From assembly GCF_005239225.2 (NCBI RefSeq), contig NC_133298.1, positions 2,356,001-2,420,000 on the forward strand: a stretch of DNA of 64,000 nucleotides, given 5' to 3'. The translations under genes and the position numbers were made by a program. The notes below the pieces were generated by a model, which searched no databases, had not been told where the DNA came from, and was given only the letters and a program-made list of their open reading frames with translations. The stretch comes from Populus alba (Eukaryota; Streptophyta; Magnoliopsida; Malpighiales; Salicaceae). Positions 12,434 through 41,696 of the stretch are shown here, piece after piece (the stretch's first letter is position 1; every line of letters begins with the position of its first letter).

Positions 12434-12466
12434 TGATTAGTACTTAAAAGTGCATGTTTATCAAGG
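12434..12466 (+). repeat. Athila LTR remnant, first 33 bp
   Basis: These 33 bases are identical to the start of the LTRs at 13798 and 39963 (tgattagtacttaaaag...). After them homology jumps to the 3' end of the LOG reading frame at 12476. Confidence 0.85.
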
Positions 12467-14470: not shown

Positions 14471-14481
14471 CCTATAAAAGG
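14471..14481 (+). promoter_or_regulatory. Athila LTR TATA box
   Basis: cctataaaagg lies in the first half of the LTR and is identical in the right LTR near 40636. It is the likely core promoter for element transcription. Confidence 0.6.
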
Positions 14482-14924
14482 AGGCACTTACCATGTATTG
14501 AGGCATCTTGGTTTCCAGATCAAGATCATGCTCTTGCTTTCTCTCTTTGTATTGCTTATGTTTTGCTTTCAATAATATCAAGTTTATGCACTTCATTTCC
14601 TTTCCTTTACTTAGTTAACTTTTTTCTCATTTATGTTCTTATCTTGTTCATTTATGTTTCTTTCTTTCATTATGTTTAGCTAAGTTAATTACGTCAAGGT
14701 GAAAAGGGTACACTAATGGTGTAAGAATAAGTATAATATAAACTTAACATGGACCTTAATGTTGGATACTAACATGTTTTATATTTGTTATCTTGTTCAC
14801 TTTTAATACTCTGCTTGTTAAATGGTTAATCTAGATTTATGTTGTATAACACTTGGTACAACAAATACTTGGCACTTTCATAACCCATACTGTATGGTAT
14901 AACCGACACCTGAGCTATGAAAGG

Positions 14925-17888: not shown

Positions 17889-18176
17889 AAAGGAACTTGA
17901 TTTGTTGTTAACATAAGTTATAATCATGAATGTCTGCCAACATTTACAAGTATTAGCTTTATTCGAATAAGATAACTAATGTAATCATGTTAACAATTTA
18001 TAATTTGATTGGAACCTCCTTTATGTGTGGTTTTCAATTGAGTAATAAGAGTTTATACTATACTTGTTTGAAGTACCATTAGTGGATCCTCTAACCTTGA
18101 CATTTGTTTTTATCATTGTTTAATCCTTACGTTAATCTTTCATCTCAAAGTTCTCATTAATTTCTTCATCTTCTGC

Positions 18177-18178
<2 letters not shown>

Positions 18179-18216
<38 letters not shown>

Positions 18217-18369
18217 TACATTCTGTTTATATTATATAATATATATCTTTGATCTTTTCATAAACTCAGTATATAGGCTGGAAACCTGTGACCCGATCTT
18301 TTAGATCATTCTCAGGTATAACAACGCCACATACTGAGTATTATAATAATAATTATTATTGTTATTGTT

Positions 18370-18403
<34 letters not shown>
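18179..18403. repeat. (ATT)n and (GTT)n microsatellites
   Basis: ATT repeats at about 18179-18217 and GTT repeats at about 18371-18403, inside the Athila middle LTR. The right LTR has shorter versions at 41379-41408 and 41560-41578. Confidence 0.9.
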
Positions 18404-18404
<1 letters not shown>

Positions 18405-18530
18405 ATTGTTATTTATAATTTATACAATTAACCTCTTTGTGGTTCGACCCCCGGTCTTGCCGGGTTATTTATTACTTCGACACTCCTGCACTTGAGAAAA
18501 GACATCAAGCTTTTGGTCGTGTCAAGTTTT

Positions 18531-18548
18531 TGGCGCCGTTGCCGAGGA
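18531..18548 (+). other. Athila primer binding site
   Basis: tggcgccgttgccgagga lies six bases after the LTR end. This form is typical of Athila elements, which are reported to use a tRNA-Asp primer. Confidence 0.8.
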
Positions 18549-18727
18549 GGTAAATTGTTGTATAAATTATAATATTTATTTTATTTTCTCTTTTCACTTT
18601 TCATTTTTTCTAACTCTTGTTTCTTTTCTTTTCTTCCTTTTTCTTCTCTTCTTACACGTGCATGAGAGTTTGGTCACGTACATTAAGTGGTCGACTTTGT
18701 AGGGTATCCTCATCATTTTCAGAAAAT

Positions 18728-21057: not shown

Positions 21058-22902
21058 TGTTGCTACCCAATTTTTGACCCATGTTTTTGATATATTTTCA
21101 AAAAATCCAAAAAATAGAGAAAAACAATGAAAATCAAAAAAATATGTTTTTTTAATATATTCTCGTCATTTTAGCATTTTTCAGCGTCGTCTAAAAAGAA
21201 TTTTAATTTTTCAAAAAGATTTTCAAACGCGTTCGACTTTTCATGCGTCGTTTTTAAAATCATTGATTTTCCTCATCGAGTCGACGTTGATATTGCTCGT
21301 TTTCAAAAAAATACAAAAAAACAAGAAAAATCAAATTTTACAAAAAAAAAAAGTTAAGGGACCAATTTTGAAAACTTGGCAATATTTTTTGCCTATAAAT
21401 ACTGGTTTCCAACACTTGCAAACGGGGGCAATTTTGATATTTTGAGGGAAAAGACAACACAAAAACAAAACCCTAAAATCTATCTCTACCAAGCCAGCCG
21501 CCACCTGCACTCTCCCTCCCCTGCCTTGAATTTTTTTTTGATCCCCCACACAGACCCCTCTAACCGGAACAGCCACAGCCGCCTCACCATCTCCTCCCAC
21601 TCTCCCTCGCCCTCTGCCAAACAAACCAGCCACCACCTACACTCTCCCTCTCCTCCCCGATCTCCTCTCTTCGCCAACCAAAGCAACCGCTCCTTCTCCA
21701 GCCGAAACCAGAGAAACAAAGCCACCCCTGGCCTTTGATTTTTTCTCAGCCGGCAACAAACCGACAGCCCCCTCCCTCAGCAGCCTCTTCTTCGACGGTT
21801 CCTTCAACCAGCCGATCCACCGGCCACCGACAGTTGCAGATAGGACAAAACCCGAAGAGCCAGCAGTGTCGTCCACACCCCCTTGGCTGGCTACCAACAT
21901 CAACGGAGAAGCAGCTCCACAGATCGGCCATCAGCCGCCCGATCTACCTTCTCCACCCAACAAATGAAGCCGGCCACCACCGGACAACCCCCCATGACCA
22001 CCGCTAGATCTGCCATTGGCAGAAGCAAAAAAACAAGCCGGGAGGAGCCGAGGACACAAGTTTTTGAGCAGATCTAAAAATAACAAGATAAAATCGACTG
22101 GTGTGTGTTTCTTTTTTTGCTCTGCAGGTCACCGGCGGTTTGGGAGATTGAGAAGAGGGAGTCGATCCAGCCCCCCCTGTTGTTGGGTTTTTCTTGCGGC
22201 GGCGCGTGAACCCACGCGCCGCCAGTGGCGGTGGCACGTGGGAAGACGCGTCGCCACTGTTCATGCAGGCCCAGAAGTCCTTCCCTGCAATTTCTGGAGT
22301 TTTTAAGGACTATTTTGTAAATTTTAAATTAATTAATGTAATTTTTATTTATTTTGTTTTGAATTTGTATTTGTATTTGTATTGTGGATGTAAAAGAAAA
22401 AAAAGAAAAGAAAAGAAAAGAAAAAATAAATAATAAAAAGAAAGTTGTGTGCGTGTTTGTTTTTTTTATTTATGTTATTGGATTATAAAAAAAGGACAAA
22501 AAGAATTAATTGTTAATTTAAATATGGTTAAATATCTCAAGGACAAATAAAATCAAGTTGTATTTTCCATGAAAATGTAGGAACAAGTTTCTACATCTAT
22601 TCGGGGATTTAATAACTGATTTATTCAAGCCTTAGAATTTAATTAATATTTTAAATTTTCAAATCACATCAGAACACAAAGCAGCTTACCTCATGTAGGG
22701 TGCGTTAGGGGTGCTAATACCTTCCCTAACCACAACCAGTCCCTTACTCGCGATCTCTGACAAGACCAGTACATCAGGTTCCCTAGTAGCCCTCAATGAA
22801 TTACTAGGTGGCGACTCCAACGAACGAATTCAAAGCAAAACGCAACACAACGAGAGAAAAATCGCCAGCACGATGACGCGTCGGATTTTTTGGGGTGCGA
22901 CA
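21058..22902 (+). repeat. Element C 5' LTR
   Basis: 1845 bp. TATA box gcctataaat at 21391-21400. A CT- and Pro-codon-rich leader (21480-22000) gives spurious ORFs on both strands. A GC-rich stem-loop lies at 22198-22223 and the PBS-like tggcgactcca at 22809-22819. Compared with the 3' LTR it lacks about 109 bp near 21770. Confidence 0.92.
22198..22223 (+). other. GC-rich stem-loop in family 2 LTR
   Basis: Arms ggcggcgcgtg (22198-22208) and cacgcgccgcc (22213-22223) pair perfectly around an aacc loop. A second, shorter GC hairpin (ggcacgt/acgcgtc type) follows. The same hairpin is perfect in both LTRs of element E (50335-50360 and 59130-59155) and has two mismatches in the 3' LTR of C (30988-31013). 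Confidence 0.8.
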
Positions 22903-22905
22903 GAA

Positions 22906-22923
22906 TGGCGACTCCACTGGGGA
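22906..22923 (+). other. Element C primer binding site
   Basis: tggcgactccactgggga lies three bases after the 5' LTR. This is the Ogre/Tat form, reported as complementary to tRNA-Arg. The same site stands at 51092-51109 in element E. Confidence 0.8.
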
Positions 22924-25900
22924 CGGTACTGTTTCTGACATTATTGGACTAAGCTTTGTGTATTTGATGTGTTTAAGTTTTTGTATTTTTATCTCTTTGT
23001 TAATATTTATTTCCATGCATTTTATAGAATTGTCTCATGCATCACCTGTATTTATTTTTGAGAACACACACATTAAACTTTAAGTTAGGTGGGGGACTAG
23101 CAGCTTACCTTATGACTTGAGTCGAGGTTTAAGTTTGTGTAAACCCCAACTCTTTGTTGAGTGCTTAGACTGGTAATGATTGGTACACGTGCCAACCCAT
23201 TACCTACCGGGCCCCTATATTGCCTTTACGAGGGCAATCACTAGGACAACAAGAGACCCCTTTTAGAGACCAAGTAGCAAACCTACCCTTTGTCTCACGT
23301 AAAATGAATAGAGCCTGTCTTTAGGATGTATGTGCTATTGTTTTGCATTCGAGCAAACCCTTCTTGAAGCATCTTGAACTCAAGACTTATGGGTGACACA
23401 ATGGCCGTCACTCAGAAAATTTTCATTATAGAGTTTGGACAAAAATCACGATTCTTGTTCCATCATGCAAGAGTTACGACCATATTGTCACCCCTCGAAG
23501 GGTGAGTTCGTCATATAGATTACATACATGTACCGGGTTGAAAGGTAGGTCCCCCACACAAGCTGTGCTGCGCGTGATTGAAGAAAGATGATGGAAGTGA
23601 AGAAATGTGTCAGATAGAGGCTCATTATCAGATTAAGGTTGAGAGCATCAAAGGTGAAGTAGCTGGACTCAGATCTGCTCGAACAAGTGTTGAGCATCAA
23701 ATGGAAGGAGAATGTCTGCATAGTTTTTTGTGGGAACACTACTTGTTCACGTCCAATTGAAGCTGTACCTCTCCTTTTCAGTCATGAACAACAACAACAA
23801 CAACAACGCCTTCAGTCATCAACTAATGACAACTTTGATTCTTGTCTAGTTGCATTGTTAAGTGTTCATCACCTCCACATCATCTAATGGAACCAAACGA
23901 CTACTAGCCTCCTGTACATGGTGCATTAGTCTGCTTTGAAGTTACCCCGATTATGAGCTCAATTCCAGTTCAGCAGCATAAGATGGTCTGAAAAACCATG
24001 ATTAAACACTGAACTTCAATGTGGCAGAGCTCTCTCTACAAAAATCCATTTATGGCTCTGCAAATTGGGAATGCAAGAGGGGATTTATAAGTTGCATATG
24101 CTACAAATATTTCTCTCATCAGTTTCAGCACAAAGACCTCTTAGTAGGTTGAAGAGCCAGACCTGGTCTGAAAAATATGAGCAGACATCAAACTTCAACG
24201 TAGCAGAGCTCTCTCGGCAGGAATCTGTTTGTGGATCCGCAAGTGGGAAATCCAAGAAGGAATACAGTAGTTTCAGATCATCTATGATTTTCCTCCAACA
24301 GTGTCAGTATTAAAGCGCAAAAGTAGAGAGAAGAGACATGCCTAGACTGAAAAACATGAAGAAGACTGAAACTTCCACAGAGCAGAACTCCCTCTATTGG
24401 TGCTTGTTTGCTGCACCGTTCGAGAGGAATCGAAGAAGAAATAGAGGAGATTCATGTCCATCATTTTCTCCCATATAAGAGATAAGGCATGATTCCACGT
24501 GTCGTTAGCGGTGGTGTTGTGCGCTACCAAGATTACCTAGCTTGTGGAAGTTTTCCAATAACCCTCAACCAACCACAACAACATTGGAAGATTGAAATGA
24601 TGTTGTGAGGATTTGCCGAAGAATTGAACAAGCTATGAAGAGAGGAAAGATTGAAGGATCTGCCATGGATTCCAGAACAATGATGAGAAATGAATTAGAA
24701 GATGACTCTGACGGTGGGAAACCTTAATTATGTGGTCTAGCCAGGTCTCACGGTAGCATCAATTGCTCAAATGTCTTTACCAAGATTGACATTCCTCTGC
24801 CACTTAAGTTTGTCGACCAGCATCTGCCAGATTCTAGAATTTTTCTTGACTCCGACAAATCCCATGTAACCACTATTTTCCAGGTGGTTCAACCTGGACA
24901 AGAGATGTGTTGTCATGGTGGGGGTCCTCGACCATTTTAGTTAAACAGATGCAAGAGTTTCAAGAGTCGAGCTCAATTTGCGAAAGATGATGTCATCAAT
25001 CATTTTCAGAATGACAAATGATCGGAATTGCTTGGCAGAACATAGATATTGCCAGAGAAGCTAATCCAAGAAGGAGTTAAACTGTCAAGCATTTTTGTTA
25101 TGGATTTTTGCCATTTTGCATTTTGTTTTGGGATCACATCTCATCCTTGAACGAAACATGTCTTTCTTTGTCTTCTTGTTGTTTTGAAATCAAGAGATAC
25201 TTCTTTCAAAGGGTATTTTGACAAAATATTTTGATCAAACTCCAACATGCGATAAAGGTTAATCAATCCTGAAGATTAAAAGTGTTTTGATTGCAGAAAT
25301 GACTTGATTCTTGTTGAAATGACATGAGGTGACCGAACAAATTTTGAGCTCACACATAAAATTGAACCACACATCATATAGCTAAGTTTTAGCAGTATGC
25401 ATAATGGCATGTAGTGGATTTGGTAGTTATGGACTCGTGAATCATGATTCTTACAAGTCCAAATCATTACACTGGATGAGGTCAAAATTTATCGGTTCTA
25501 ACTGACCTTGCTTGAAATGAGAAAAGGCCATCTTTGATATCCCTTCACTTTCTAAAGATTATATCCCTTGTAGTCCCATTTTGAGCTGGATAGAATTTTC
25601 TTTTCATAAAAAACCCTGACTAGGATCACACCCCACACTAGGGGCAAATGGGAGATATTTTGAAGACATTGATGTAATTAATAGATAAAGGGGAAGGCTT
25701 AGAACAAAAGTCAAATGATTGAGAGAGGGCTAAAAGAAAACACATAGACTAGGGGCATATAAGAAAATTTTGAGGAAGGCTATGAGTTGAATTTGCCTTC
25801 ACTTAAAGACAAGTTAAAAAGAAATGGAAAAAGAATGCCTATCAATTCTAAGAGAGGCAAGGCAGTTTTCAATTGAGAAAAGACAGCAAATGCCAAAAGT

Positions 25901-28160
25901 CAACACTAGAAAAATCGATGCTTCATATCTTTTGGTGTGTCTTGGATAGAGCCTCTAATGTCTTCAAAAAAATTAGATTAGTTATTCATTAAAGAAAAAG
26001 TTGGATTTGCATTATGACCTATGTTAAGAGAATTCTGAAATTTAAGATTAACAAGGTTATATGTCACTTTCTCTACAATGACAACAAGAGAAAGAGAATC
26101 GATGAATAATTAATGTTGGTCTTAGGTCGTTGAAACCCTCAAACACCTTTTGAGCCTCTGAAATTCCTTTCTTTTATAGCCATGAACCATAGCCTACATT
26201 ATGTGCTTTTAAAAGCCCTTTTTAATCAAGCAAGCAACTTGAACCGATAAATGGCGCGCTCGAAACTAGAAGAGCTTTTCTATAAGGGTCGGGACTTCAT
26301 GAATTAAGCTACTAGTCATTATGCATGTTGATAAAATAAATGCTAAGAAAAGAAACAACCTTTCTTGATAAAGCTTGAGCATCTTGTTTTTGAAATTCAT
26401 AAAAATGCCACCTCATCACAAACCATCAAAAGATATACCCAAAATCAGAGTTTAAAGTGGATAGAAAGAACCATGGGAAAAACCATTTTAATCTTACAAC
26501 GGGTCGATTTCTGTTTTCAAAATACAAGACAATTGAAGGACTACATTGAATGACGTGTGTTGGGTCTTTAACCAAAGAAGCTTGAATTTAAAAAAAAAAA
26601 CAACTTTTCAAAAACTGATATATCTATGATTTCATTTCAACAATTAGACTTGAGTAGACATGACCTTTGAAGTATGAGATTTGATTTTAGAACAATAAAG
26701 ATTGTCAAACTAAGAAGAACATTTATTGAGTTTGCGGAATCCTTGCCATGAAATGACATCAACATTTCTCGACACTCCTTGAAACGTTGACCACCTGAGG
26801 GCAATACAGTGGACCCTAAGAAGGAAAACAGACAGTAGCCAGATCAACTGGGGGCAAAGAAAGAATCAGATGATGAGTCATCAAAGTCCCGGAAAGTTAT
26901 GTTTAGCATCTGACAATGACAAAGGAAAACATCATTGAGTATAAACTGATGAACGAGCATTCATATCATTACTGGGGCAATGTTGTTCAAAGACAATCCA
27001 TGATCTAGTGCACTTCAGCAGCAATTGATGAGCAACGCTGCACTTGAAGGATATTTTCATATCTTCATCTTGGGTTACCCTGTAAAACATGGCTATGACT
27101 CCTGACATATGTTATCGGGTGAGTGCATTTGAATGAACATCGAACATATGCATACCACTAAGATTGACTATGGGACCATCTATTCTGAAGCTCAAATGTG
27201 CACTTCACCGCATGAATATGGGTGATAACATGAATATCATTGATGATGCCAAAGTAGTTATTTTCACGATCTGATTTGACAAGCTAAGAGGAATCCATAG
27301 AGAAATACATCGCGCTTACAATGATGAGCTGTTTACTGCAAAGCATGAGATTCATGTCTGGATGACTTGGCAGTTCCATGAAGGCTGGTGACCATACATA
27401 CTTGAATGGTGTTTCAACCGAAGGCAAGTTCATGACTGATTAACAATCTTGATGGGTGTTGGCATGATGCACACAATCAATCAGAGGATAATTCTCAGAA
27501 GAAGCCAGAGAGAAAATCCTTCATGATGAATCAAGCAATACCACACTTGGGGGCAGGGTCAAGCTTGATGAACAATGCAAGTAGTAATTGTCGAAGACAG
27601 CCAGGGATGGGCACTGCATTTATAGCTGAGTGGATGGCTAACACATGAATGAGCCAATGCATCGGAAGAACAAAGAAAGCTTTGGGATACAAACAAGGGA
27701 ACCCTATGACGATGGAGCATCAAGGAGGGGGGGGACCTATATTTTGAATCAGGTAAGGATGCATGCATATAATCTAACCTCAAAAAAAAAAAAAAAAAAA
27801 CCATTTGCACATATTTTTGAATTATTACTGGAAAAACCTTGATGAGGTCCAACAAGATGGTGGAAAAAGAAGGAAGCATTTTGGTGATAATAATAAAGAA
27901 TCGGTTTTGATCATGGAATAAAAAGAAAATAGGATGAACCTTACCATTAGGAAAATCCCAAAGAAATGAAAAGATCAACCTTGCAATCAGGAAGCCTCGA
28001 GTTTTCAACCCTTGCAGTCCGGAAACACCGAGTTTTCAAACCCTATGATCAGGAATTATCAGGAAGCACCAGGTTTTCCAGCCCTTCTTCTGTCATCCCC
28101 TCAGGACTTCGCCAGGTATGTCCTATTTTTCACACTTGTCATATCACATTTTTTCCATCT
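22924..28160 (+). mobile_element. Element C non-coding interior
   Basis: About 5.2 kb without any readable gag or pol domain. Only short frames occur, each broken at different places in the homologous interior of element E (51110-56320), so neither copy shows coding conservation. One stretch at 24590-24660 reads like the RIEQAMKRGKIEG segment found in Tat-type gag, which may be a decayed gag piece. Repeated 'ctgggggca' or 'ctaggggca' purine motifs (near 25640, 25745, 26845, 27545) resemble 3' UTR sequence of this lineage. Poly-A runs lie near 27781-27800. Confidence 0.6.
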
Positions 28161-29402
28161 GGGTAGGTCGCCCATCATAATAAGACCGTTTTTCATCATT
28201 TTTTTCCCCTGGGTAGGTCACCCATTACAATGAAACCGCACTTCACATTCTTTCTATTTGGGTAGGTCGCCTATCACAACGAGACCACTTTTTCATATTC
28301 TTTCCACATGGGTAGGTCACCCATTACAATGAGACCACACTTCACATTTTTTTTTCATTTTGGGTAGGTCACCCATTACAATGAGACCGCACTTCACATT
28401 TTTTCCATTTGGGTAGGTCACCCATCACAATGAGACCGCATTTCACATTCTTTCCATCTGGGTAGGTCACCCATCATAATAAGACCGTTTTCCCATTTTT
28501 CCACCTGGGTAGGTCACCCATTACAATGAGACCAACATTTTTTCTGGGTAAGTCACCCATTACAACACGACCACTTCTCCATGTTTTTTTACTTGGGTAG
28601 GTCACCCATTACAATGAGACCATTCTTTCCCCTGGGTAGGTCACCCATAAGAATGAGACCACTCTTCCTCTTTTCCACTTGGGTAGGTCACCCATCACAA
28701 TGAGACCACCATTTTTTCTGGGTAAGTCACCCATTACAACACGACCACTTCTCCATGTTTTTTTACTTGGGTAGGTCACCCATTACAATGAGACCATTCT
28801 TTCCCCTGGGTAGGTCACCCATAAGAATGAGACCACTCTTTCCCCTTTCCACTTGGGTAGGTCACCCATCACAATGAGACCACCATTTTTTCTGGGTAGG
28901 TCACCCATTAGAATGAGACCATTCTCCATCTTTTGTTTATTTGGGTCGGTCACCCATAAGAATGAGGCCATTCTTCCCCTTGGGTAGGTCACCCATAAGA
29001 ATGAGACCACTCTTTCCCCTTTCCACTTGGGTAGGTCACCCATCACAATGAGACCACCATTTTTTCTGGGTAGGTCACCCATTAGAATGAGACCATTCTC
29101 CATCTTTTTTTACCTGGGTAGGTCACCCATTACAATGAGGCCATTCTTCCCCCTGGGTAGGTCACCCAAAGAATGAGACAACTCTTCCCCCTTTCCACTT
29201 GGGTAGGTCACCCATCACAATGAGACCATCATTTTTTCTGGGTAGGTCACCCATTAGAATGAGACCATTCTCCATTTTTTTTACCTGGGTAGGTCACCCA
29301 TAAGAATGAGACCATTATTCCCCCTGGGTAGGTCACCCATAAGAATGAGACCACTCTTCCTCCTTTCCACTTGGGTAGGTCACCCATTATAGTGAGACCA
29401 CT
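28161..29402 (+). repeat. Tandem array in element C 3' UTR, with 174 bp higher-order repeat
   Basis: About 28 monomers of 38-54 bp, each starting gggtaggtcacccat and continuing to aatgagacc. From 28546 onward the monomers are organised in fours: the marker attttttctgggta recurs with its gggt at 28546, 28720, 28894, 29068 and 29240, giving spacings of 174, 174, 174 and 172 bp. Each monomer head has complementary ggg/ccc ends (gggt-aggtc-accc) able to fold back. Tandem 3' UTR repeats are a known trait of Ogre-lineage elements. A repetitive reverse-strand ORF (28783-29103) is a by-product of the period. Confidence 0.92.
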
Positions 29403-29419
29403 TTTTACACATTCTTTTG

Positions 29420-29560
29420 TTCTAGTTGAATGAGGTCGCCAGATGGGATCTCATGTAGCTTTGGTTAAAGGGAATCTCCATATGGGATTTCAGGTTGACC
29501 GAGTTACACACATTCTTTGGTTTTGGTTAAAGGAGGTCACCAGATGGGATCTCAAGATAA
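29420..29560 (+). repeat. gtcgccagatgggatctca repeats, element C
   Basis: Two to three degenerate units built on gaggtcgccagatgggatct and gggaatctccatatgggatt, joined by tttggttaaag. They are homologous to units at 3399-3570 and 57125-57350. Confidence 0.8.
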
Positions 29561-29670
29561 TAAAAAAAAAAAAAAAAAAAAAGAGAAAGAGAGAGACAAA
29601 AAAAGAAAAAAAGAACAGAGTAAGGTTTTTAGATGAAGTGGATATTGAGCAAATAGAAAGACAAGTTTTT

Positions 29671-29738
29671 CTTTACAAAGCTTACTATGCAAAACATCGA
29701 GGATTTTTGCTTCGTAAGCATTGTAAAGAGGGGGCATC
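29671..29738 (+). other. Hairpin and polypurine tract, element C
   Basis: Arms ctttacaaagcttac (29671-29685) and gtaagcattgtaaag (29714-29728), 14 of 15 paired. The polypurine tract aaagagggggcatc (29725-29738) overlaps the foot of the right arm and abuts the 3' LTR. Confidence 0.75.
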
Positions 29739-31692
29739 TGTTGCTACCCAATTTTGGACCCATGTTTTTGATATATTTTAAAAAAATCCAAAAAATAGAG
29801 AAAAACAATGAAAATCCAAAAAATATGTTTTTTTAATATATTCTCGTCATTTTAGCATTTTCAGCGTCGTCTAAAAAGAATTTAATTTTTCAAAAGATTT
29901 TCAAACGCGTTCGACTTTTCACGCGTCGTTTTTAAAATCATTGATTTTCCTCATCGAGTCGACGTTGATATTGCTCGTTTTCAAAAAAATACAAAAAAAC
30001 AAGAAAAATCAAATTTTACAAAAAAAAAGAAGTTAAGGGACCAATTTTGAAAACTTGGCAATATTTTTTGCCTATAAATACTGGTTTCCAACACTTGCAA
30101 ACGGGGGCAATTTTGATATTTTGAGGGAAAAGACAACACAAAAACAAAACCCTAAAATCTATCTCTACCAAGCCAGCCGCCACCTGCACTCTCCCTCCCC
30201 TACCTTGAATTTTTTTTTGATCCCCCACACAGACCCCTCTAACCGGAACAGCCACAGCCGCCTCACCATCTCCTCCCACTCTCCCTCGCCCTCTGCCAAA
30301 CAAACCAGCCGCCACCTACACTCTCCCTCTCCTCCCCGATCTCCTCTCTTCGCCAACCAAAGCAACCGCTCCTTCTCCAGCCGAAACCAGAGAAACAAAG
30401 CCACCCCTGGCCTTTGATTTTTTCTCAGCCGACAACAAACCGACAGCCCCCCTCTCTTTCAAAACCGAACCGGAGTAGCCACTCCATTTCCCCAAGCCAC
30501 AAATCTGCCCTCTCTCACCTGAAAAAGACCAACGGCCACAAACCCATCAATGCCGAACCCCCTCCCTCAGCAGCCTCTTCTTCGGCGGTTCCTTCAACCA
30601 GCAGATCCACCAGCCATCGACAGTTGCAGACCGAACAAAACCCGAAGAGCTAGCAGCGCCGTCCACACCCCCTCGGCCGGCTACCAACAGCAACGGAGAA
30701 GCAGCTCCATAGATCGGCCATCAGCCACCCAATCTACCTTCTCCACCCAACAAATGAAGCCGGCCACCACCGGACAACCCCCCGTGACCACCGCTAGATC
30801 TGCCATTGGCAGAAGCAAAAAAACAAGTCGGGAGGAGCCAAGGACACAAGTTTTTGAGCAGATATAAAAATAACAAGATAAAATCGACTGGTGTGCGTTT
30901 CTTTTTTTGCTCTGCAGGTTGCCGGCGGTTTGGGAGACTGAGAAAAGGGAGTCGATCCAGCCCCCCCTGTTGTTGGGTTTTTCTTGCGGCGGCGCGTGAA
31001 CCCACGCGCTACCAGTGGCGGTGGCGCGTGGGAAGACGCGCCGCCACTGTTCATGCAGGCCTAGAAGTCCTTCCCTGCATATTCTGGAGTTTTTAAGGAC
31101 TATTTTGTAAATTTTAAATTAATTAATGTAATTTTTATTTATTTTGTTTTGAATTTGTATTTGTATTGTGGATGTAAAAGAAAAAAAAGAAAAGAAAAGA
31201 AATAATAAATAATAAATAATAAAAAGAAAGTTGTGTGTGTGTTTGTTTTTTTTTTTTTTTATGTTATTGGATTATAAAAAAAAGGACATAAAGAATTAAT
31301 TGTTAATTTAAATATGGTTAAATATCTCAAGGACAAATAAAATCAAGTTGTATTTTCCATGAAAATGTAGGAACAAGTTTCTACATCTATTCGGGGATTT
31401 AATAACTGATTTATTCAAGCCTTAGAATTTAATTAATATTTTAAATTTTCAAATCACATCAGAACACAAAGCAGCTTACCTCATGTAGGGTGCGTTAGGG
31501 GTGCTAATACCTTCCCTAACCACAACCAGTCCCTTACTCGCGATCTCTGACAAGACCAGTACATCAGGTTCCCTAGTAGCCCTCAATGAATTACTAGGTG
31601 GCGACTCCAACAAACGAATTCAAAGCAAAACGCAACACAACGAGAGAAAAATCGCCAGCACGATGACGCGCCAGATTTTTTGGGGTGTGACC
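29739..31692 (+). repeat. Element C 3' LTR
   Basis: 1954 bp, very similar to the 5' LTR, but with about 109 extra bases near 30450-30560 flanked by cccccct-type repeats. TATA box near 30070. The terminal base is changed (gacc for gaca). Confidence 0.92.
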
Positions 31693-31697
31693 AAGAG

Positions 31698-32443
31698 TGA
31701 CAACAGATTTGACATCTGACATCCCACCAATCGATGATTACTCTCCTGACGAATCCTTACTTTCTCTTAGTTCAATGCCTTGGTTTGCTAAAAATATCAA
31801 TTTTCTTCCTTTAGGAGATTTGCCAGCTCACTGGAGTATTGAATACAAAGGAAAGTTTTTGAACAAAGTGAAGAACTTTTATTGGGATGACCTTAACTTA
31901 TTCAAATATTGTCCTGATAAAAAATTTCAAAGATGCATTCCTGACAATGAGGTAAGTAATGTCATTAAAGTTTGTCATTCTAAAGCATGTGGGAGTCATT
32001 TCTCATTAAGAAAGACGACTGCAAAAATCTTACAAAATGGATTTTTATTGGCCCCACCATGTTCAAGGACACACATGCATTCTGTAAAAACTTGTGAAAA
32101 TTGTCAAAAAGTTGATACTGATCAAAAAGTTTTGCTTTATAATTCTTGACTCCATTTATTTCCTGAAAAACTAAGATCAAGATGGAGCGGTCCATTTATT
32201 TTGAAACATGTGTATCCTTATGGGGCCCTTGATATTGACAATCCAAAGAATGACAATGTTTTGAAGGTAAATGGACATTGTTTGAAAGCTTACTTTGATG
32301 AGTTTCCTAGTGAAAATGAATCCATTGGTTTGAATGATCTTATTGATAAAGGTTGGTTATTTTGTTTTTCTCACATTTTTTCTCTTTTTGGTGTGACTTT
32401 TGTTTTGCTAGTCTCTCTTTCACCTCGGTCAAATGGTGGATAA
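31698..32443 (+). pseudogene. Athila RNase H end and integrase remnants
   Basis: The frame continues the RNase H end from 21057, then gives PWFA-LPLGD-PAHW and an HHCC integrase zinc domain (H at about 31975, CENC at about 32092). It then jumps directly to the integrase C-terminus (LRSRWSGPF, VYPYGALDI, NVLKVNG, about 32170-32290). The catalytic D,D-35-E core, normally several hundred bases in between, is missing. A TGA at 32147 interrupts the join. Together with the missing RT this makes the Athila copy dependent on other elements for movement. Confidence 0.82.
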
Positions 32444-32534: not shown

Positions 32535-33202
32535 TTGAATCTCTTCTCTAATTCTTTTTTGAAAATGGACACCACTCTTGAAAAGTTGAAAAGGTATTTT
32601 CCCGCTTTGCCTCTAAATGCGATTAATAAAATTTACCGTGCTAGGTGTGCAAGATTGAGGTCGTTAATGAATCATGAAATTCCTGAAGATATTCGCTGGC
32701 TAATTGAAGCAAAGGTCCGCTTATCAGGTGAGTCCTCCAATTCTTTCATTTCACACATGCCTGGAACAAGTAAAAGCACTTTTGCAAAGAAACGTCGTGC
32801 AAAACGACTGAAAGTCTATCACAGATGTGCCAGATGGACTTGTAATGCGACGTGTCATTCTTTAGGAATGGTATCTGAAACCATGAAGATAAAATACAAT
32901 TCATTAAGGATGGCCTGAGTAAGGGGTCTTTAGATAATCTTTTGTTGACCCTTGAGACGCATCCCAGTGGAGATGTGCATCATGTAATTCATGATTTATG
33001 GCCACAATTCCATAAAGAACATGATCGACTTAGTCTTGGAAATCTGACTAAAAAAGACCCTGTTTGCTAGTTTTTAAGAAAACTGGATGGGAAGCCTATC
33101 CCCGACCCATAAAGGGCGTTTAAGCCGTTCTTGGACGTAAAACCAAGGGAAGATGTGAGCCACAATCACAACTACCTGTACATACATGCTTTTTTAAAAT
33201 AA
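32535..33202 (+). pseudogene. Unknown ORF between Athila pol and the LOG-type gene, decayed
   Basis: I do not recognise a family. The likely start is ATG 32565 (MDTTLEKLKRYFP). The first part runs to a TGA at 32916; a one-base shift near 32890 allows the reading to go on in another frame (KDGLSKGSLDNLLL, HDLWPQFHKEHDRL, LTKKDPVC) past stops at 33068 and near 33110 to 33202, about 210 codons in all. Visible traits: a basic stretch KKRRAKRLK followed by a Cys cluster RCARWTCNATC that could bind a metal, then an alternating hydrophobic and charged part. There is no signal peptide or membrane segment, so it is not env-like. It lies where Athila elements may carry an extra ORF. It could be element-specific or captured. 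Confidence 0.5.
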
Positions 33203-33213
33203 ATAATTAATAA

Positions 33214-33215
<2 letters not shown>

Positions 33216-33249
<34 letters not shown>
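33216..33249. repeat. (GA)n microsatellite
   Basis: About 17 GA units, 130 bp upstream of the LOG-type ATG. Confidence 0.95.
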
Positions 33250-33254
<5 letters not shown>

Positions 33255-33304
33255 GAGACTACAGCTAGCCTACATATAGGTGGTATGATTGCATTTTCAA
33301 TTTT

Positions 33305-33381
33305 TCATCTATAAATTCTTCTCTTCCTTCCCTTCATTTCTACTCATCCCATACATTCATCAAATATAGAAGTGTGTAGAA
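33305..33381 (+). promoter_or_regulatory. Possible core promoter and leader of the LOG-type gene
   Basis: tctataaattc near 33309-33318 resembles a TATA box and lies about 70 bp upstream of ATG 33382, after which a CT-rich leader follows. If real, the captured gene kept its own promoter, but this is weak evidence from one motif. Confidence 0.3.
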
Positions 33382-33554
33382 ATGGCAGGTTTCTCAAGTC
33401 ATCACATAAGAAATATTTGTGTTTTCGGTGGATCCAGTCTTGGGAAAGAAAAAGAGTTTTTAGAATCAGCAAATCATCTTGGTCGGGTACTAGCTGAGAG
33501 AAAGATTCATTTAGTATATGGGGGAGGCAACCTTGGGTTAATGGGAGGTGTGTC

Positions 33555-36500
33555 TGTAACAACCCCGATTTTCTATATTCTTTTTCGCGATACATTGGAA
33601 ATTTTTAGGTAATTTTTTTTTTGATATACAGGTTCCACCAAAATTTCGGCAGAGTCTCCCCTATACTGGGAGGTCCCAAGTTATCGATATATACCCTGTT
33701 TACACTTCTAATATCTCACATCTCCTCATAACTCAATTACGACCCAATCATCCTGGGTCTCAACCCAACTCATTCTCATCAACATAACACATCTTATTCA
33801 ATAACATCATATAATGTAGTTCAAATAAAAGATTCAATTTCAATTATAAACATGCATGGTCAAAAAGGTACTAAGAGTTTCAACCATTAGATTAAAGACA
33901 TACATTCAAATTTACAGATTTATATTACATCTCAAGTTTTAGGAGATAAGTCTTTTAATTTACAATTTATTTACATGGTCAAAAGCAAAAGACAACTAAT
34001 CTAGTATCACTCTTGACACGACCCTGATGGACCTAAAAATAGAAATTAACATGTACACGTAATTATAAGAAAATAGTAACAAGCAATAACAATGGCAAAC
34101 AATAATCTCTACGGAATTTCTTTTGATATATAAAGTTAGGCATAAACCTCTTTTACAACATATATTTTCCATCTATTACCAATATCCATCTAATATCCTA
34201 TCTCATTTGCCAAAAACAATTCCATTTTGGAAATCTCAACACAACTTAACGGTTTGCGGACACCATCTTCTTATAAATCAATTCTCACTTAATACCAAGA
34301 TATTCCTCTCTTGGTATCATTAGCTTATCTCATTCTTTTGGAATAACTAATCCATATATTCCCTTTCTGAATCTATTGCTAAAAGGTAATCACTGAAACT
34401 AATAAATGTCATTAGTATCATTAGTCTTCTAATATCGAGCTAGACTAATCAATTACATTCACATGTCAATATCAATACAACCGATCATTATCATTAACTA
34501 TTCCTACCTTAGAATGGTTAATCAAATCTTATTCATATCTGGTTTACCATCAAACTTATCGATGTCAAGAACCCTTGACATCATTAGCCTCCTTACCTGG
34601 AGTAGCTAATCACACCAGAAATGGTTGTCGATACCAATGTGACCTATTGATATCATTAACTATTCTCGACCCGGAATGGTTAATCAATGACATTTGATTC
34701 TTCCATTCGTGCCGAACCCCTTTCATTATTATTTTTTTATTAACATCATATGCATTGTAACCACGGTTGCCAAGTATCATTCGCACACAATCTTAGTTAT
34801 CGACACTACGGTCACTAAGCATCCTTAGCCATCAACACTATGGTAACCAATTATCTATCAATTCCCCTCCAATCTCCAAGTCATTGTGTCTATCCAATAA
34901 CCACATTAATTAATTTACTCAATATCTTAGTCATATATTAATTATTTTACTCGTAACATTTAGAATTTACTACTTCTAACTTCAATAATTTAATTCACAT
35001 AATCTCTTCAAAACTTAACTATCCGGCTACTCATCCCGATTGCCAATAATTCTGGTAATTTCATATAATTACCCACACATTTGGTTAACCTTCCTCGATT
35101 ACCAATAAATCTAGTAATTTCATACGAATTACCCAGCCTCCAGCTAACCTCTTTTGTTAGCCAATCAATCCGGTAATTCCATACGAATTACCCTATATTC
35201 GATTAACTTCCTCGTTAACCAATAAACCCGGTAATTCTCTTAATTACCCAAGAAATCTGGCTAACCCATCCTGGTTGGCAAAATCAATCCGGTAATTCCA
35301 TACGAATTACCTAGCATCCGGCTAACCTCTTTTGTTAGCCAATCAATCCGGTAATTCCATACGAATTACCTCATATTCAGTTAACTTCCTCGTCAACCAA
35401 TAAACCCGGTAACTCTTTTAATTACCCAAGAAATCTGGCTAACCCATCCTGGTTGCCAAAATCAATCTAGTAATTCCATTCGAATTACCCAGCACCCGGC
35501 TAACCTCTTTTGTTAGCCAAATAATTTCAGCACTTTCTCTTAACTTACCAATAGTTCTTATTTGTAATAATCACTCAACTTATTCATTTGTTTCATTCTT
35601 TTAACATCAATTAAACACACAACACAGATATTTAAGAAAAACTGATAATTACAAAATAAGATGATGAATCACCTACCTAAAATAGGTGCACGTGCTGCCA
35701 CTCCATGCAATTTTCCGGTCCCCACAGCTTTCCCTGTACCACCAGGGATTCAATTTTTATCAACAATACAACCAACATCACATCTTCATTTAATTCTCAT
35801 TCAACTAGTATTCTCAAACTAATCACAAGGAATTTTCTTTAAGATCTCATACACTTACTCATTTTAATGTTTATATTCATTCTTATAATTTTGTTATCAA
35901 AACCATCACTCAACAGCAATTCCAAGCAATGATTAAAAATCGTCTAATTTCGATCAATTAAGCTTAACCAACCCAGAACACTATCTAGTGTCTGAATCAT
36001 ATCTAAAGTTGTAAAACTCAGTTTTGGGAGTGATTTATCTCTATGAAAGGCTAAACATAGAGATACAACTTTTATGAAGAAACCAACTCCAAATTATTTT
36101 GTTTTAAGGCTCACAATCAACAATCATAATAGCCCCTCCTTTATAGCTAAAATTTTGGACAACGAGGATTTTCATTCCTTGGAAATCCTTTTCAACTTCC
36201 AACTTATTTTCATTGCAAAAACAACATCATCCAAGGTCATTTGGCATAATTAAATCACAAATTCAACCCAATTCTAAAGCAAAACATTCAAACAATTTCC
36301 CTACCTCTACAATATAGCAAAGATTAGACCAAAAATAAGGAAACTCATTCCTTTTGGGATTTCTCCTAATATTATTATTAATACAACAAAATGATGAACT
36401 ATTCATTTTCTTTCGCTCTCTCCTCGTGCGATTAAACATATGCGGCAAACCTTAACAATTAATATTCTTAGATCATTATCACCACAACAATTTCACCCCA

Positions 36501-38229
36501 CTAGTTGGAATCCATGACAATCTTCATTAACTAATCAATTTGACAAAAATACTTATGCCTAGCTTTAAATATGCTTTATTTTCCATATTTCTTTCATTTC
36601 AATTTCTTTATGGTTCCACCCCATTTACATCCACACAACCAACAAGTTAGCTTTGTATTCAATCAACATGTTCATATAGCAATGTTCCTTACTATTCTTA
36701 CACAATAATTATACTTCCCCTCATATAAAGAATACACAATTAATCTATAATAATCCCAATAACAAGAACATATTTTACCATTACATCTTCCATAAAACCT
36801 ACACCCACACAATTCTAATTTCATCAAAACATGCATTTAATCAAGCTTACTACATTTTGTCAAAACTAGCAATAGATTCAAAAGGTAATAATTCATCAAC
36901 CTCTAATTATTGTTTCAAACCCAACGGTCAGACTACATATCATAGCGTTGTGCATAATATATCTAAAACTCATAATGATCCAACAGTTAAATCGCCCTAG
37001 ATCTGAAGAAAACCGAGCTTACCTGAAAATGGGCGAGATACTGTTCAACATGCATGAAACCTTGCCGGAGAAATATTTTCCGATCTCCACCGTCCAGAAT
37101 GAAGGACACATCTAGTCGCACCACATATCCAAGAATGAGCATGATCCAACGGTGGAAGAGAGAGAAATAGGCCGGCGACCAAACTGCCCTGCAGGTGCAT
37201 TTCCTTTTTGTTTTTCATGAAATTGCCGATGATGATTTATGTCCAATGGAGTGTGTTCCTTCCAATCCCTCCGGTCAGTTAGTAGATAAGTGTAATAAGA
37301 ACAATATATCCAAAACGTAGCATGCTCCAACGGTTGAGTCCTGAGATATGGCCACCGGAGTATTATTGGTTTTACTCCAAAATCTGCAGCTCTCTCTGTC
37401 CGCTTTTCTCTTCTTTTATTTTTTTTTTAATCTGGTGGCCTTTGCATTTTTATAGGCACCTTTTTCCATAATTACAATTTTGTCCCTCGTTCATGCCTTT
37501 ATGTATTTTATTTTATTTTTCATGTAAACTATCTAGTTTATTTCTGCTTAAATCGTTAGTCTTTACCAAACTCCGATTGGGATGAGATATTTAACCAAGG
37601 TAGGAAAACATGTTAATAGACTTCATGCAAAATTTCTTCTCGATCCTACGATTGGATTGAGAATTCTGCTTCCTAATATAAACTTGTTCAATTCATGACT
37701 TTTTATAAACAATCTAGATTTTTCTTGTTCAATCTTCACAAACAAAAATCATATCAATTATCCTTCTAAACCTTTACGATCATTTTATTATTTTGAAATG
37801 TATTAATTTTAGGATTTCCACCTTTATTTATTTATCGGGCTTATTACCGTTTCAAAATAACGTCACTGAGTTTAATCGGTGCTTGCACCTTCAGTCCTAC
37901 CCTTTTTCATTGCACTATCATTTATTATAATGCATTCTTTATTACCTCACTTACTTCCTAAAAATATTTTGTTATTTTTCTCATTATTTTATCCATCAAA
38001 ACACGTTACCAATTTCTCTGTCCTTATGAATTCTAAACCAAAATTCATTTTATAGAGGTCATCTCTTCCATTTTATAGAGGTCATCTCTTCCATTATATA
38101 TCATTATTTATCTATTATTTCTAATCTTGGTTTTCATCACTCATTGAAATATTACCACTTTCAGTCTTACGTTTACATGAGGGTTTACATATCTACATAT
38201 TTAAATTATAGATTTCTAGGGTTTTCATA
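33555..38229 (-). mobile_element. 4.7 kb insertion in the LOG-type frame, probable solo LTR
   Basis: Flanked by the 5 bp duplication gtgtc (33550-33554 and 38230-38234). The forward strand starts tgtaacaacccc and ends gttttcata. On the reverse strand this reads tatgaaaac ... ggggttgttaca, with a TATA box (cctataaaaatgc) near 37450-37462, as for a long LTR promoter; the TG start would be mutated to TA. I see no gag, pol or internal direct LTR pair, so a solo LTR is the best reading. The lineage is undetermined. Three copies of an approximately 180 bp unit lie at about 35117-35525, and degenerate 'cattagc/gctaat' repeats at 34300-34900. No gene is seen in its 4.7 kb. Confidence 0.75.
35117..35525. 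repeat. Tandem units of about 180 bp inside the 4.7 kb insertion
   Basis: gaattaccNagc...ggctaacctcttttgttagcc recurs at about 35117, 35297 and 35477, with ccggtaattccatacgaatt between. The units contain short inverted pairs (ctaacc/ggttag). Confidence 0.7.
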
Positions 38230-38715
38230 GTGTCAATGGCTGCATTTTTAGGAGGCAGTCAAGTTTTGGGTGTTGTCCCCAAAGCTTTAGCAAATGGAGA
38301 CATCATTGGAAAAACAATTGGAGAGGAACTACAGGTCTTCACAATGTCTGACTGACTGAACGCCATGTTTAGCCATGTTGATGCCTTAATTGCCTTACCA
38401 GGTGGTCTGGGCACATTGGAAGAGATCTTTCATATTTCATCTTGGGCCCAACTGCACATTCACCATAAACCTATAGGTTTGTTAAATGTCAATGGTTTTT
38501 ATGATAAGTTGCTGTCTTTCCTTGATCAAGCTGTGGAACATGAATTTCTAACATCTTTGGCACGACAAATCATAATCTCTGCTGCTACTGCTGAACAATT
38601 GATTGACCAACTACAATCTTTCATTCCTGTCATTGATCCCTGCATGAGTCGCCTAGATTGGTCAACTAAGGAAAGCCGTAAAAAGCTTAGATTAGATTTG
38701 AGCCTTCATCTTTGA

Positions 38716-39962
38716 AACCTTGTGTCTTGTGGTTTTATTAATAGCATATTATTTTGTTTTATTACTTCTTATATTTGTTTAAGTATGTTTCAGGTTTGTC
38801 ATTGTTCGCTGTTTCAGGTGATGTCTTCTATACTCTATCTTTCTACCTTAGAACATTGAGGACAATGTCTCGTTTTGGTTGGGGGGAGAGGGTAGTAGTT
38901 TAAAAAAAAACCTAACGAACTAACTGTTTTTGTTTTTAAAAAAACCATTTGGCAAAACTATTATTACTAGGATGGCAGAGTAAAGAGGAATTATTCTTGA
39001 GACGCATCTTAGTAAAAATTTTCTAATGGTTATTTGCAATATTCATAACAAGGCCTATTAGAATACTTCTTGAAATATTCAGGTTTACAAACTCTCGCAT
39101 TGCTATCACTTGATTCTGCTCCTATACTCATTTAACAAGTATTATTAAACCTTCATTTTCACACACACACTTCAACATATGATTGTGGGTTGCACATTAG
39201 ATTATTACATTATTTATGTTCTTTTGTTGAAGGTAACAACTAAGGGAAAGGGATAGTATATAATTTGCACAAAAAAAAAATGATAATATTGATGATAATA
39301 AAAACGTAGATAAGTTTGGTTTCGTAGCCTCCCTAACCTAAACAATTAAGCCCGAAGGGGTGTTTTAACACCTAATACCCTAAAGTCAACTGACTTGGGA
39401 GCTATTGGCCCAAAGCTTGTTACATGAGTTAAGGAGAAAAGCTTAAGGGAATCAAACATTGCACTATCTACGTATCAGTATCTGCAACTCGAGTTGTTAA
39501 GCTCGTAGGGGTGTCTCAACACCTAATGCCCTAAGACCAACTGGTCTTGGAGTCATTAGCCTAAAACTCGTTACATGGGTTAAAGATACATTGTGTTTTA
39601 AGTTGTATGTGTATATATATATATAAAAAAAAAAGAAGAAGAAGAAAAAAAAGTAATAATAATAATAATCTCAACCCAAGGAAGTTCACCTTAAACATTT
39701 GAACATAATATTGTTTTCTTCCAACAAAAGCCCCATCATCTATGTTTTCATATATTGAGCACATAAAAAGAAGGTTTATTAATATCTTGTTTAAGAATTG
39801 TATGAAGCAGGAATATATAAATTTAATGAGAGTTTGTTTATCTGGATAGATTAATGGAAGTTGAATGATGATGAATGCCTTGCTTTGTGAAACTTGCAAA
39901 ATTGTTTCTCTATTTTTAACGCTTTAGATTACTAGGACTAGTAATAAGCTGGTTGGGGGGTG
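38716..39962 (+). mobile_element. Athila 3' UTR, right copy
   Basis: Follows the LOG stop codon directly and matches 12555-13797 closely. The attgaggacaatgtctcg and ggttggggggagagg motifs lie at about 38860-38895, and the polypurine tract ggttggggggtg precedes the LTR. The position of the LOG frame upstream of these Athila motifs is the main evidence that the gene is within the element. Confidence 0.78.
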
Positions 39963-41376
39963 TGATTAGTACTTAAAAGTGCATGTTTATCAAGGTTTTA
40001 TATCATCATTTTGCACTTGAAGTATCAATAACTCCTTAACTAAAGCATGTTTTATAATAACAAGTTTGATACTATAAGATACCTTAATTTATGGTAAATG
40101 CTCATCTTAAATGCAGGTCTATCACATAAATGAAAAGATTGATTGATGAGTTTAAGTATTGAAAGTGAAAGGACAAAGAGATGGCCAAACTTAGAAAGAG
40201 ATGCTGACGCAGTCCAAACCGGAAACATTGCTCGGTTAATTGGATCATATCTGGAGCTCTAGATCTCGGATTTAGGTCCATTTTATATGGATGGAAAGGT
40301 AAGACAAAGGCCTACAACTTTCATGGGAGCCCAAGATTTGAAAAGGTCGTTTTGAAGTCCAAATTGAAGGAACAGAGAAGGAGTCCGAAGCTGTCCTGCA
40401 GCCCAGACACTATTTAGTGTTCAACCCATATCTTGAGTTCTAGAAGTCCAAATGACCTCATCTTTTTTTTGTTGGAAAGATGAGACAATTTCCTAGAACA
40501 TTCCTGAGGATTCTGGGCAAATTATGATGTTAGCAATGACGTGTTGTTCAGACAAGAAGATAAAGATTGTCACCAAGTCAAGATGTGGCCACCCACTCAT
40601 CATGTAGTCAATAAATCAATAGTTCCAAATTTTGGCCTATAAAAGGAGGCACTTACCATGTATTGAGGCATCTTGGTTTCCAGATCAAGATCATGCTCTT
40701 GCTTTCTCTCTTTGTATTGCTTATGTTTTGCTTTCAATAATATCAAGTTTATGCACTTCATTTCCTTTCCTTTACTTAGTTAACTTTTTTCTCATTTATG
40801 TTCTTATCTTGTTCATTTATGTTTCTTTCTTTCATTATGTTTAGCTAAGTTAATTACGTCAAGGTGAAAAGGGTACACTAATGGTGTAAGAATAAGTATA
40901 ATATAAACTTAACATGGACCTTAATGTTGGATACTAACATGTTTTATATTTGTTATCTTGTTCATTTTTAATACTTTGCTTGTTAAATGGTTAATCTAGA
41001 TTTATGTTGTATAACACTTGGTACAACAAATACTTGGCACTTTCATAACCCATACTGTATGGTATAACCGACACCTGAGCTATGAAAGGAACTTGATTTG
41101 TTGTTAACATAAGTTATAATCATGAATGCCTGCCAACATTTACAAGTATTAGCTTTATTCGAATAAGATAACTAATGTAATCATGTTAACAATTTATAAT
41201 CTGATTGGAACCTCCTTTATGTGTGGTTTCCAGTTGAGTAATAAGAGTTTATACTATACTTGTTTGAAGTACCATTAGTGGATCCTCTAACCTTGACATT
41301 TTGTTTTTTAATCATTGTTTTAATCCTTACGTTAATCTTTCATCTCAAAGTTCTCATTAATTTCTTCATCTTTTGC

Positions 41377-41407
<31 letters not shown>

Positions 41408-41696
41408 TACATTCTGTTTATATTATATAATATATATCTTTGATCTTTTCATAAACTCAGTATATAGGCTGGAAACCTGTGACCCGATCTTTTAGATCAT
41501 TCTCAGGTATAACAACGCCATGTACTGAGTATTATAATTATAATTATTGTTATTTTTATTGTTGTTGTTGTTGTTGTATTGTTATTTATAATTTATACAA
41601 TTAACCTCTCTGTGGTTCGACCCCGGTCTTGCCGGGTTATTTATTACTTCGACACTCCTGCACTTGGGAAAAGACATCAAACTTTTAGTCGTGTCA
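39963..41696 (+). repeat. Athila right LTR
   Basis: 1734 bp, begins tgattagtacttaaaag and ends cttttagtcgtgtca. It is uninterrupted and shows the empty site for the solo LTR found in the middle LTR. TATA box near 40636. Microsatellites are shorter than in the middle LTR. Confidence 0.92.

What the first reader, a model, noticed from the sequence alone, without database searches (positions are those of the whole stretch)
32565..41696. An Athila-type retrotransposon carries an intronless LOG (cytokinin-activating) gene
Seen: a full-length LOG-type frame (217 codons after removing one insertion) lies downstream of Athila integrase remnants and upstream of the Athila 3' UTR motif attgaggacaatg, polypurine tract and LTR. 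It has no introns. Its last 26 codons, with the same UTR and LTR, occur a second time at 12476-13797, so the gene 3' end and element 3' end were duplicated as one unit. Known: plant LOG genes normally have several introns, and plant LTR elements can capture host transcripts. Inferred: the element transduced a LOG transcript and could have spread a cytokinin-related gene. A retroelement with a hormone-activating cargo would be unusual.
Basis: partly seen in the sequence, partly recalled or inferred. Interest (0 to 1): 0.87.

Follow-up and report, generated by a model that had tools for sequence, protein, structure and literature searches.

The report
Poplar retrotransposon carrying a hormone-activating gene
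A common jumping element of a poplar genome carries its own intron-free copy of a plant gene that switches on the growth hormone cytokinin, beside a second gene resembling a plant-virus RNA-binding protein, and both genes show signs of having been kept working while the element spread.

Summary
LOG is a fixed part of an Athila-type Ty3/gypsy family: of 88 places sampled by the 3' motif ATTGAGGACAATG, 65 have LOG directly before it, 64 of them with a second cargo ORF upstream. The motif occurs 1137 times; of 150 scored LOG matches, 136 have no stop. LOG shows purifying selection: dN/dS 0.33, against 0.52-1.26 in neutral simulations. Nineteen host-type LOG places look split by an intron where element copies run on.

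The window's own copy is dead: a 4.7-kb insertion and a stop in LOG, no RT or integrase core seen. Its second LOG 3' end is the stump of a tandem neighbour.

LOG-domain (YgdH) Ty3/gypsy elements were already reported for Citrus and P. trichocarpa, so the cargo is not new. Not found in print by my searches: the carlavirus-type nucleic-acid-binding ORF beside it, the selection on both genes, and a LOG-deleted subfamily (57 exact junctions). What the cargo does for the element is untested.

The parts
12434..12466 (+). First 33 bp of the LTR: stump of the outer element; TAACA just before it (12429-12433) agrees in 4 of 5 bases with TAGCA after the 3' LTR (41697-41701)
   Evidence: 33 bp identical to the starts at 13798 and 39963; flanks printed
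12476..12554 (+). Last 26 codons and stop of a second LOG copy (tandem stump)
   Evidence: 78 of 79 bases identical to 38637-38715
12555..13797 (+). 3' UTR and polypurine tract of the tandem stump
   Evidence: 1198 of 1237 aligned bases identical to 38716-39962
13798..18524 (+). 5' LTR, interrupted by a foreign insertion of about 3 kb (about 14925-17893)
18531..18548 (+). Putative primer binding site TGGCGCCGTTGCC.. (tRNA-Asp type is recalled, not tested)
18614..19567 (+). gag, broken by stops
   Evidence: PF03732 E 7.3e-10 on 18614-19153
19962..20999 (+). Protease region
   Evidence: PF13650 E 4.2e-5
21058..31692 (.). Nested foreign LTR element inserted in the pol remnant, AAGAG on both sides
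31691..32149 (+). Open frame with the integrase zinc-binding domain; integrase core missing downstream
   Evidence: PF17921 E 1.1e-5
32162..32341 (+). Integrase C-terminal remnant
   Evidence: my reading of the translation; integrase tails match at the same place in relatives
32565..33070 (+). NABP-like cargo ORF, broken by a frame shift near 32890 and a stop at 33068
   Evidence: PF05515 E 7.7e-4 and PF01623 E 5.2e-3, both under the curated cut-off in this copy; relatives above it
33382..33555 (+). LOG, N-terminal 58 codons
   Evidence: PF18306 E 3.9e-6
33556..38229 (.). Insertion in LOG with GTGTC on both sides; looks like a solo LTR (inference)
38230..38715 (+). LOG, remaining codons and stop; in-frame TGA at 38353
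   Evidence: PF03641 E 2.8e-27; At2g37210 E 3.3e-31
38855..38867 (+). 3' UTR motif ATTGAGGACAATG, 143 bp after LOG
39963..41696 (+). 3' LTR

Best explanation
The window holds a dead, internally deleted copy of an abundant Athila-type Ty3/gypsy family of poplar whose 3' region carries a resident two-gene cassette: an NABP-like ORF, then LOG, a plant-type cytokinin riboside 5'-monophosphate phosphoribohydrolase gene. Shown: constant order integrase, NABP-like, LOG, motif in many dispersed copies; no intron in LOG; many open frames; dN/dS well below neutral simulations for both ORFs. Inferred: capture from a spliced host LOG transcript. Hypothesis only (about 0.25): when the element is transcribed, LOG raises active cytokinin in that cell and favours division and meristem fate, so that new insertions reach cell lineages that form gametes, while the NABP-like protein weakens silencing or alters transcription as carlavirus cysteine-rich proteins do. 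LOG is not strictly needed for movement, since a LOG-deleted subfamily also multiplied.
For: 65 of 88 motif-anchored places have LOG just before the motif, 64 with NABP; LOG ends 142-143 bp before the motif in 32 of the 65. Integrase core upstream in 29 of the 65. 136 of 150 scored LOG matches and 136 of 150 scored NABP matches without stops. 9 of 234 scanned database relatives read past the LOG stop into the same UTR, two of them for only 8 residues, one as far as the motif. dN/dS 0.326 for 13 intact LOG, 0.224 for 14 intact NABP, against simulated 0.52-1.26 and 0.47-1.16. Non-coding flank distance 0.093, close to LOG dS 0.087. 17 of 19 host-type LOG places end near one point; 131 element-type matches run through it. 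Best solved relatives of a 217-aa copy are Arabidopsis At2g37210 and At5g11950.
Against: No transcript, protein or activity was tested. Copies for dN/dS were chosen for being intact. Between nearest neighbours the ratio rises to 0.46 (LOG) and 0.39 (NABP), and to 0.68 in 47 decayed LOG copies. 8 of the 13 intact LOG copies sit in elements without the integrase core. Only 54 of 88 database relatives keep the whole PGGxGTxxE motif and Arg98. LOG can be lost (57 exact junctions). The donor is unknown. All 88 sampled places lie on one contig.
Confidence: 0.82

Rival explanations
1. LOG is a passive passenger: a retrogene caught once and multiplied by hitch-hiking, of no use to the element.
For: LOG-deleted copies multiplied (57 exact junctions); many copies are broken: 47 aligned LOG copies were not intact, 31 of them with in-frame stops.
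Against: dN/dS 0.33 against simulated 0.52-1.26; 136 of 150 scored frames without stops; diverged relatives down to 74% pairwise identity still have 217-codon frames (a set chosen for that length).
Confidence: 0.15
2. LOG protein is kept for another job than making cytokinin, for example a different nucleotide or packaging role.
For: About half the residues differ from Arabidopsis LOG3 (mean 91 of 196 identical) with a long branch to host LOGs; residue 16 is G in 73 of 81 copies outside one small clade where both Arabidopsis LOGs have C.
Against: PGGxGTxxE and Arg98 (catalytic roles recalled) keep the usual residue at each place in 71 to 87 of 88 relatives, and all together in 54 of 88.
Confidence: 0.2
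3. A natively intronless host LOG subfamily that merely lies next to Athila insertions.
For: A relative from P. trichocarpa is annotated as host gene LOGL10 (P0349), in a clade of its own (7 of 88 rows).
Against: LOG sits in one position inside the element in 65 of 88 sampled places; the best match to P0349 in this genome is only 85% identical; host-type LOG places look split.
Confidence: 0.03

Closest known systems
Ty3/gypsy elements with a YgdH (LOG-family) domain in Citrus sinensis, C. clementina and Populus trichocarpa (PMC9289625, passages; cites Steinbauerova et al. 2011, not held)
   Same: LOG-family domain inside a plant Ty3/gypsy element, in the same genus
   Different: The passages report domain detection only; no second ORF, selection, copy structure or loss of LOG is mentioned in them. 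Whether it is the same lineage could not be tested.
Orchid Ty3/gypsy elements with an m6A demethylase domain (PMC9289625, title and passages)
   Same: A Ty3/gypsy element that acquired a host-type enzyme domain
   Different: Another enzyme; its activity was tested there (title), none was here
Carlavirus/mandarivirus cysteine-rich nucleic-acid-binding proteins (PMC12172455, PMC8839810, passages)
   Same: Basic stretch followed by a four-cysteine finger; Pfam Viral_NABP and Carla_C4 matches
   Different: On a retrotransposon and 182 aa long; no silencing, nuclear or transcription activity tested; fold not established
Host LOG proteins (At2g37210, At5g11950)
   Same: Same domain, commonest residues of the PGGxGTxxE motif and Arg98
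   Different: About half identical, no intron at a point where host-type places look split, mobile and multicopy, own C-terminal tail

Membership tests
Ty3/gypsy LTR retrotransposon | Two LTRs, PBS, polypurine tract, gag, protease, integrase | tested here: met
   LTRs and PBS, gag, protease and integrase zinc-binding domains; RT and integrase core not seen in this copy
Athila clade | Place in RT/RH/INT trees and lack of the aRH domain of Tat elements | not tested
   RT absent here; no tree made. Integrase next to the same motif in relatives looks Athila-like from memory only
Mobile LOG cargo (not a neighbour) | LOG in the same element position at many separate places | tested here: met
   65 of 88
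Mobile LOG cargo (not a neighbour) | Own target duplications at each copy | not tested
LOG family | Lysine_decarbox/LOG domain with PGGxGTxxE | tested here: met
   whole motif with Arg98 in 54 of 88 relatives
LOG family | Phosphoribohydrolase activity on cytokinin nucleotides | not testable with these tools
   -
Retrogene | No intron where host genes have one | tested here: met
   17 of 19 host-type places end at residue 34-37, 2 run to residue 40 with stops, 131 element-type matches run through; splice sites not inspected
Viral_NABP / Carla_C4 | Profile match above the curated cut-off | tested here: inconclusive
   Below cut-off in the window copy; at E <= 0.001, 21 and 20 of 35 relatives match, best 1.1e-8; several printed scores are above the cut-off
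Viral_NABP / Carla_C4 | Same fold as the viral proteins | tested here: inconclusive
   Model too poor to search with (pLDDT 53)

The most novel reading that the evidence does not exclude
A plant retrotransposon lineage keeps, by selection, a two-gene host-manipulation cassette: a cytokinin-activating enzyme that drives division of the cell it is in, and a carlavirus-type nucleic-acid-binding protein that counters silencing or reprograms transcription. It would be a virus-like strategy in an element not known to be infectious.
Probability: 0.3. Interest if true: 0.88.

Novelty: new variant of a known kind. Interest (0 to 1): 0.64.

Why it matters
If the LOG copies are active, one poplar genome holds more than a hundred open, mobile cytokinin-activating genes, presumably silenced, that could be released under stress or in tissue culture. 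It makes a testable case of a transposable element using a hormone pathway together with a virus-type nucleic-acid-binding protein. A practical point: a relative from P. trichocarpa is annotated as the gene LOGL10 (P0349), so counts of LOG genes in poplar may include element copies (inference).

Tried and rejected
Rejected: (1) the 12476-13797 copy as an independent insertion; it reads as a tandem stump sharing an LTR. (2) The clade with P. trichocarpa LOGL10 (P0349; 7 of 88 rows) as a conserved host donor: the best match in this genome is 85% identical; the root of the tree is unsure and its bootstrap had not settled. (3) The no-LOG copies as the pre-capture state: the 5 aligned keep the last 11 LOG codons and stop, so I read them as deletion products; 2 of the 7 no-LOG copies lack that exact junction and were not aligned. 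Copies with integrase near the motif and no cargo (13 of 14 of the 'neither' class) are a better guide to a cargo-free state.

Led nowhere: viral-contig scans (no relative; one 49% match over 69 residues); genome contigs (three bacterial loci, used as outgroups); structure models (pLDDT 53 and 35; no fold search made); the 71-residue LOG query (150 rows, identities 54-57% and full length, taken as element copies). The genome search was busy, so the count of LOG-bearing 3' junctions was never obtained. Steinbauerova 2011 is not held. Paper searches on LOG in retroelements; on the NABP ORF: (2 papers, both on glyoxalases by title). One search ranked only by several general terms and shows little.
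Full report
WHAT IS IN THE WINDOW. The LOG frame is real: 58 codons at 33382-33555 and the rest at 38230-38712, with Pfam LDcluster4 and Lysine_decarbox and Arabidopsis At2g37210 as the nearest solved structure. A 4,674-bp insertion flanked by GTGTC splits it and an in-frame TGA lies at 38353. Around it are a 5' LTR at 13798-18524 (itself interrupted), a PBS, gag, protease, a nested foreign LTR element at 21058-31692 with AAGAG on both sides, integrase remnants, a further ORF from 32565, LOG, the motif ATTGAGGACAATG at 38855, and the 3' LTR at 39963-41696. Between the protease frame (end 20999) and the nested element only some 58 bp remain, read as an RNase H end, and the integrase linker resumes after it; so RT, most of RNase H and the integrase core are missing (my reading). 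This copy is dead.

THE SECOND COPY. 12476-14924 matches 38637-41089 at 97.3%. It is preceded by exactly the first 33 bp of the LTR and followed by the element's own 5' LTR. The simplest reading is a tandem pair sharing one LTR, the outer element reduced to LTR start, LOG 3' end and UTR. TAACA before and TAGCA after the whole composite agree in 4 of 5 bases (strings).

THE GENOME. The window is G000:C15:2356001-2420000 of a 416-Mb assembly in 96 contigs. Its C1 is 54,846,348 bp, the length given for the contig of a Populus alba protein (P0121), so I take it as P. alba (inference). The motif occurs 531+606 = 1137 times, its reversed control 0+2 times. I hold 3-kb pieces at the first 88 of the 100 places listed, all on C1; the other 12 were not obtained. 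Classes: LOG just before the motif 65 of 88, 64 of them with the NABP-like ORF; NABP next to the motif without LOG 7; neither 14; LOG or NABP elsewhere 2. LOG ends 142-143 bp before the motif in 32 of the 65, as in the window (143). Of the 14 'neither' places, 13 have an integrase match ending 149-295 bp before the motif: a related family without cargo. Of the 65 LOG-bearing copies, 29 still have the integrase core, 29 lack it as the window does, 7 are unclear. If C1 is typical, about 840 LOG-bearing copies exist (extrapolation).

OPEN FRAMES. With P0349, a 217-aa LOG, the genome gave 1750 candidates; the best 150 were scored, each matched over at least 215 residues in one block, 136 without stops, best identity 85%. 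With an NABP query: 1721 candidates, 150 scored, 136 without stops. In the protein database the LOG C-terminus found 1344 relatives, 120 listed. An alignment search scored 8000 candidates, 7940 at E <= 0.001 (bacterial and canonical LOGs surely included); of the 114 newly listed, 88 are exactly 217 aa; names given include P. alba, P. x canadensis and P. trichocarpa. Of 234 proteins scanned (120 and 114), 9 run past the LOG stop into the same 3' UTR, two for only 8 residues, one as far as the motif. Most of these records are metagenome contigs of unnamed source; some could be cDNA, so the absence of introns rests on the window and on genome.

HOST LOG GENES LOOK SPLIT HERE. An Arabidopsis LOG piece of 41 residues found 19 places at 69-94% identity: 17 end at residue 34-37, 2 run to residue 40 with stops inside. 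The other 131 of the 150 scored match to residue 41 at 55-61% identity, many in open frames of about 221 codons. So element LOGs run through a point where host-type LOGs appear to have an intron; splice sites were not inspected. This fits origin from a spliced transcript but does not name the donor. In the tree with outgroups the element LOGs form one group on a long branch next to the two Arabidopsis LOGs (long branches, bootstrap not settled).

SELECTION. Among 13 intact 217-codon LOG copies from the 88 loci, mean dN is 0.0284 and dS 0.0870, ratio 0.326 (bootstrap over sequences 0.26-0.41). The non-coding flank of the same copies differs by 0.093, close to dS. 180 neutral simulations that also forbid stops gave 0.52-1.26. 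For 14 intact 182-codon NABP copies the ratio is 0.224 (0.18-0.27), simulations 0.47-1.16. Between nearest neighbours the ratios are 0.46 (LOG) and 0.39 (NABP). 47 LOG copies that are not intact (16 of them without in-frame stops) give 0.44, and 0.68 between nearest neighbours. A first run on 9 LOG copies had given 0.265. This is the pattern of genes kept working in the moving lineage and left to decay after insertion. Against a strong reading: intact copies were chosen for being intact, and 8 of the 13 intact LOG copies sit in core-less elements. One ORF counted in the loose 205-225-codon class (L037) is integrase-like; the 217-codon set does not contain it.

LOG CAN BE LOST. In 5 of the 7 copies with NABP but no LOG, one identical junction joins the spacer to the last 11 LOG codons. 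A 25-base word across that junction occurs at 57 places, control 0. So one deletion of LOG was itself multiplied, and LOG is not required in cis for movement.

THE SECOND CARGO ORF. The intact protein is 182 aa with a basic stretch and a four-cysteine finger (C in 86, 101, 105 and 98 of 107 relatives where the finger was located). Of 35 relatives, 21 match Viral_NABP and 20 Carla_C4 at E <= 0.001, best 1.1e-8; 118 of the 120 listed relatives carry a precomputed PF01623 label. The window's broken copy scores below both cut-offs. Viral proteins of this kind are described as silencing suppressors and symptom determinants, and the one of chrysanthemum virus B as tied to a transcription factor of leaf malformation and cell proliferation (PMC12172455 and PMC8839810, passages). 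Full-text searches found no paper tying these domains to a retrotransposon (open-licence PMC papers only).

PRIOR ART. PMC9289625 (passages) reports a YgdH domain, the LOG family domain, in Ty3/gypsy consensus sequences of two Citrus species and, with a filter off, P. trichocarpa, in line with Steinbauerova et al. 2011, which I could not read. PMC6317226 (passages) counted extra ORFs only from 250 codons up, which would miss both ORFs here. One search found no other held paper with YgdH and retrotransposon.

VERDICT. Observation confirmed, interpretation supported in substance. LOG cargo is a known kind. New here, as far as my searches reach, are the paired NABP-like ORF, the measured constraint, the LOG-deleted and core-deleted subfamilies, and the scale. 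The functional story is a hypothesis.

Noticed in passing
window 32565-33070: Second cargo ORF of the same element, related to carlavirus-type nucleic-acid-binding proteins (Viral_NABP, Carla_C4); broken in this copy, open in many others.
   Followed up: yes
protein P0349: P. trichocarpa 'LOGL10' annotation belongs to the element-LOG family and forms a clade with P. x canadensis proteins; its nearest match in this genome is 85% identical, so it may be another element subfamily or a domesticated copy.
   Followed up: partly
L007, L008, L014, L019, L021: LOG-deleted copies with one identical junction; the 25-base word occurs at 57 places, so a deletion derivative multiplied.
   Followed up: yes
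L022, L044, L049, L052 and others: Copies with the integrase core missing, as in the window, make up 29 of 65 LOG-bearing copies and hold 8 of the 13 intact LOG frames: non-autonomous elements that still carry the cargo.
   Followed up: partly
window 14925-17893: Foreign insertion of about 3 kb inside the 5' LTR, similar in inverted orientation to stretches at 3740-4386 and 10012-11909.
   Followed up: no
window 41704-48522: Copia element with 98%-identical short LTRs (41703-41868 and 48355-48520), inserted a few bases from the end of the Athila 3' LTR.
   Followed up: no
window 28091-29452: Array of direct repeats with spacings of 174 and 86 bp inside the nested element, with similar units near 56452.
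   Followed up: no
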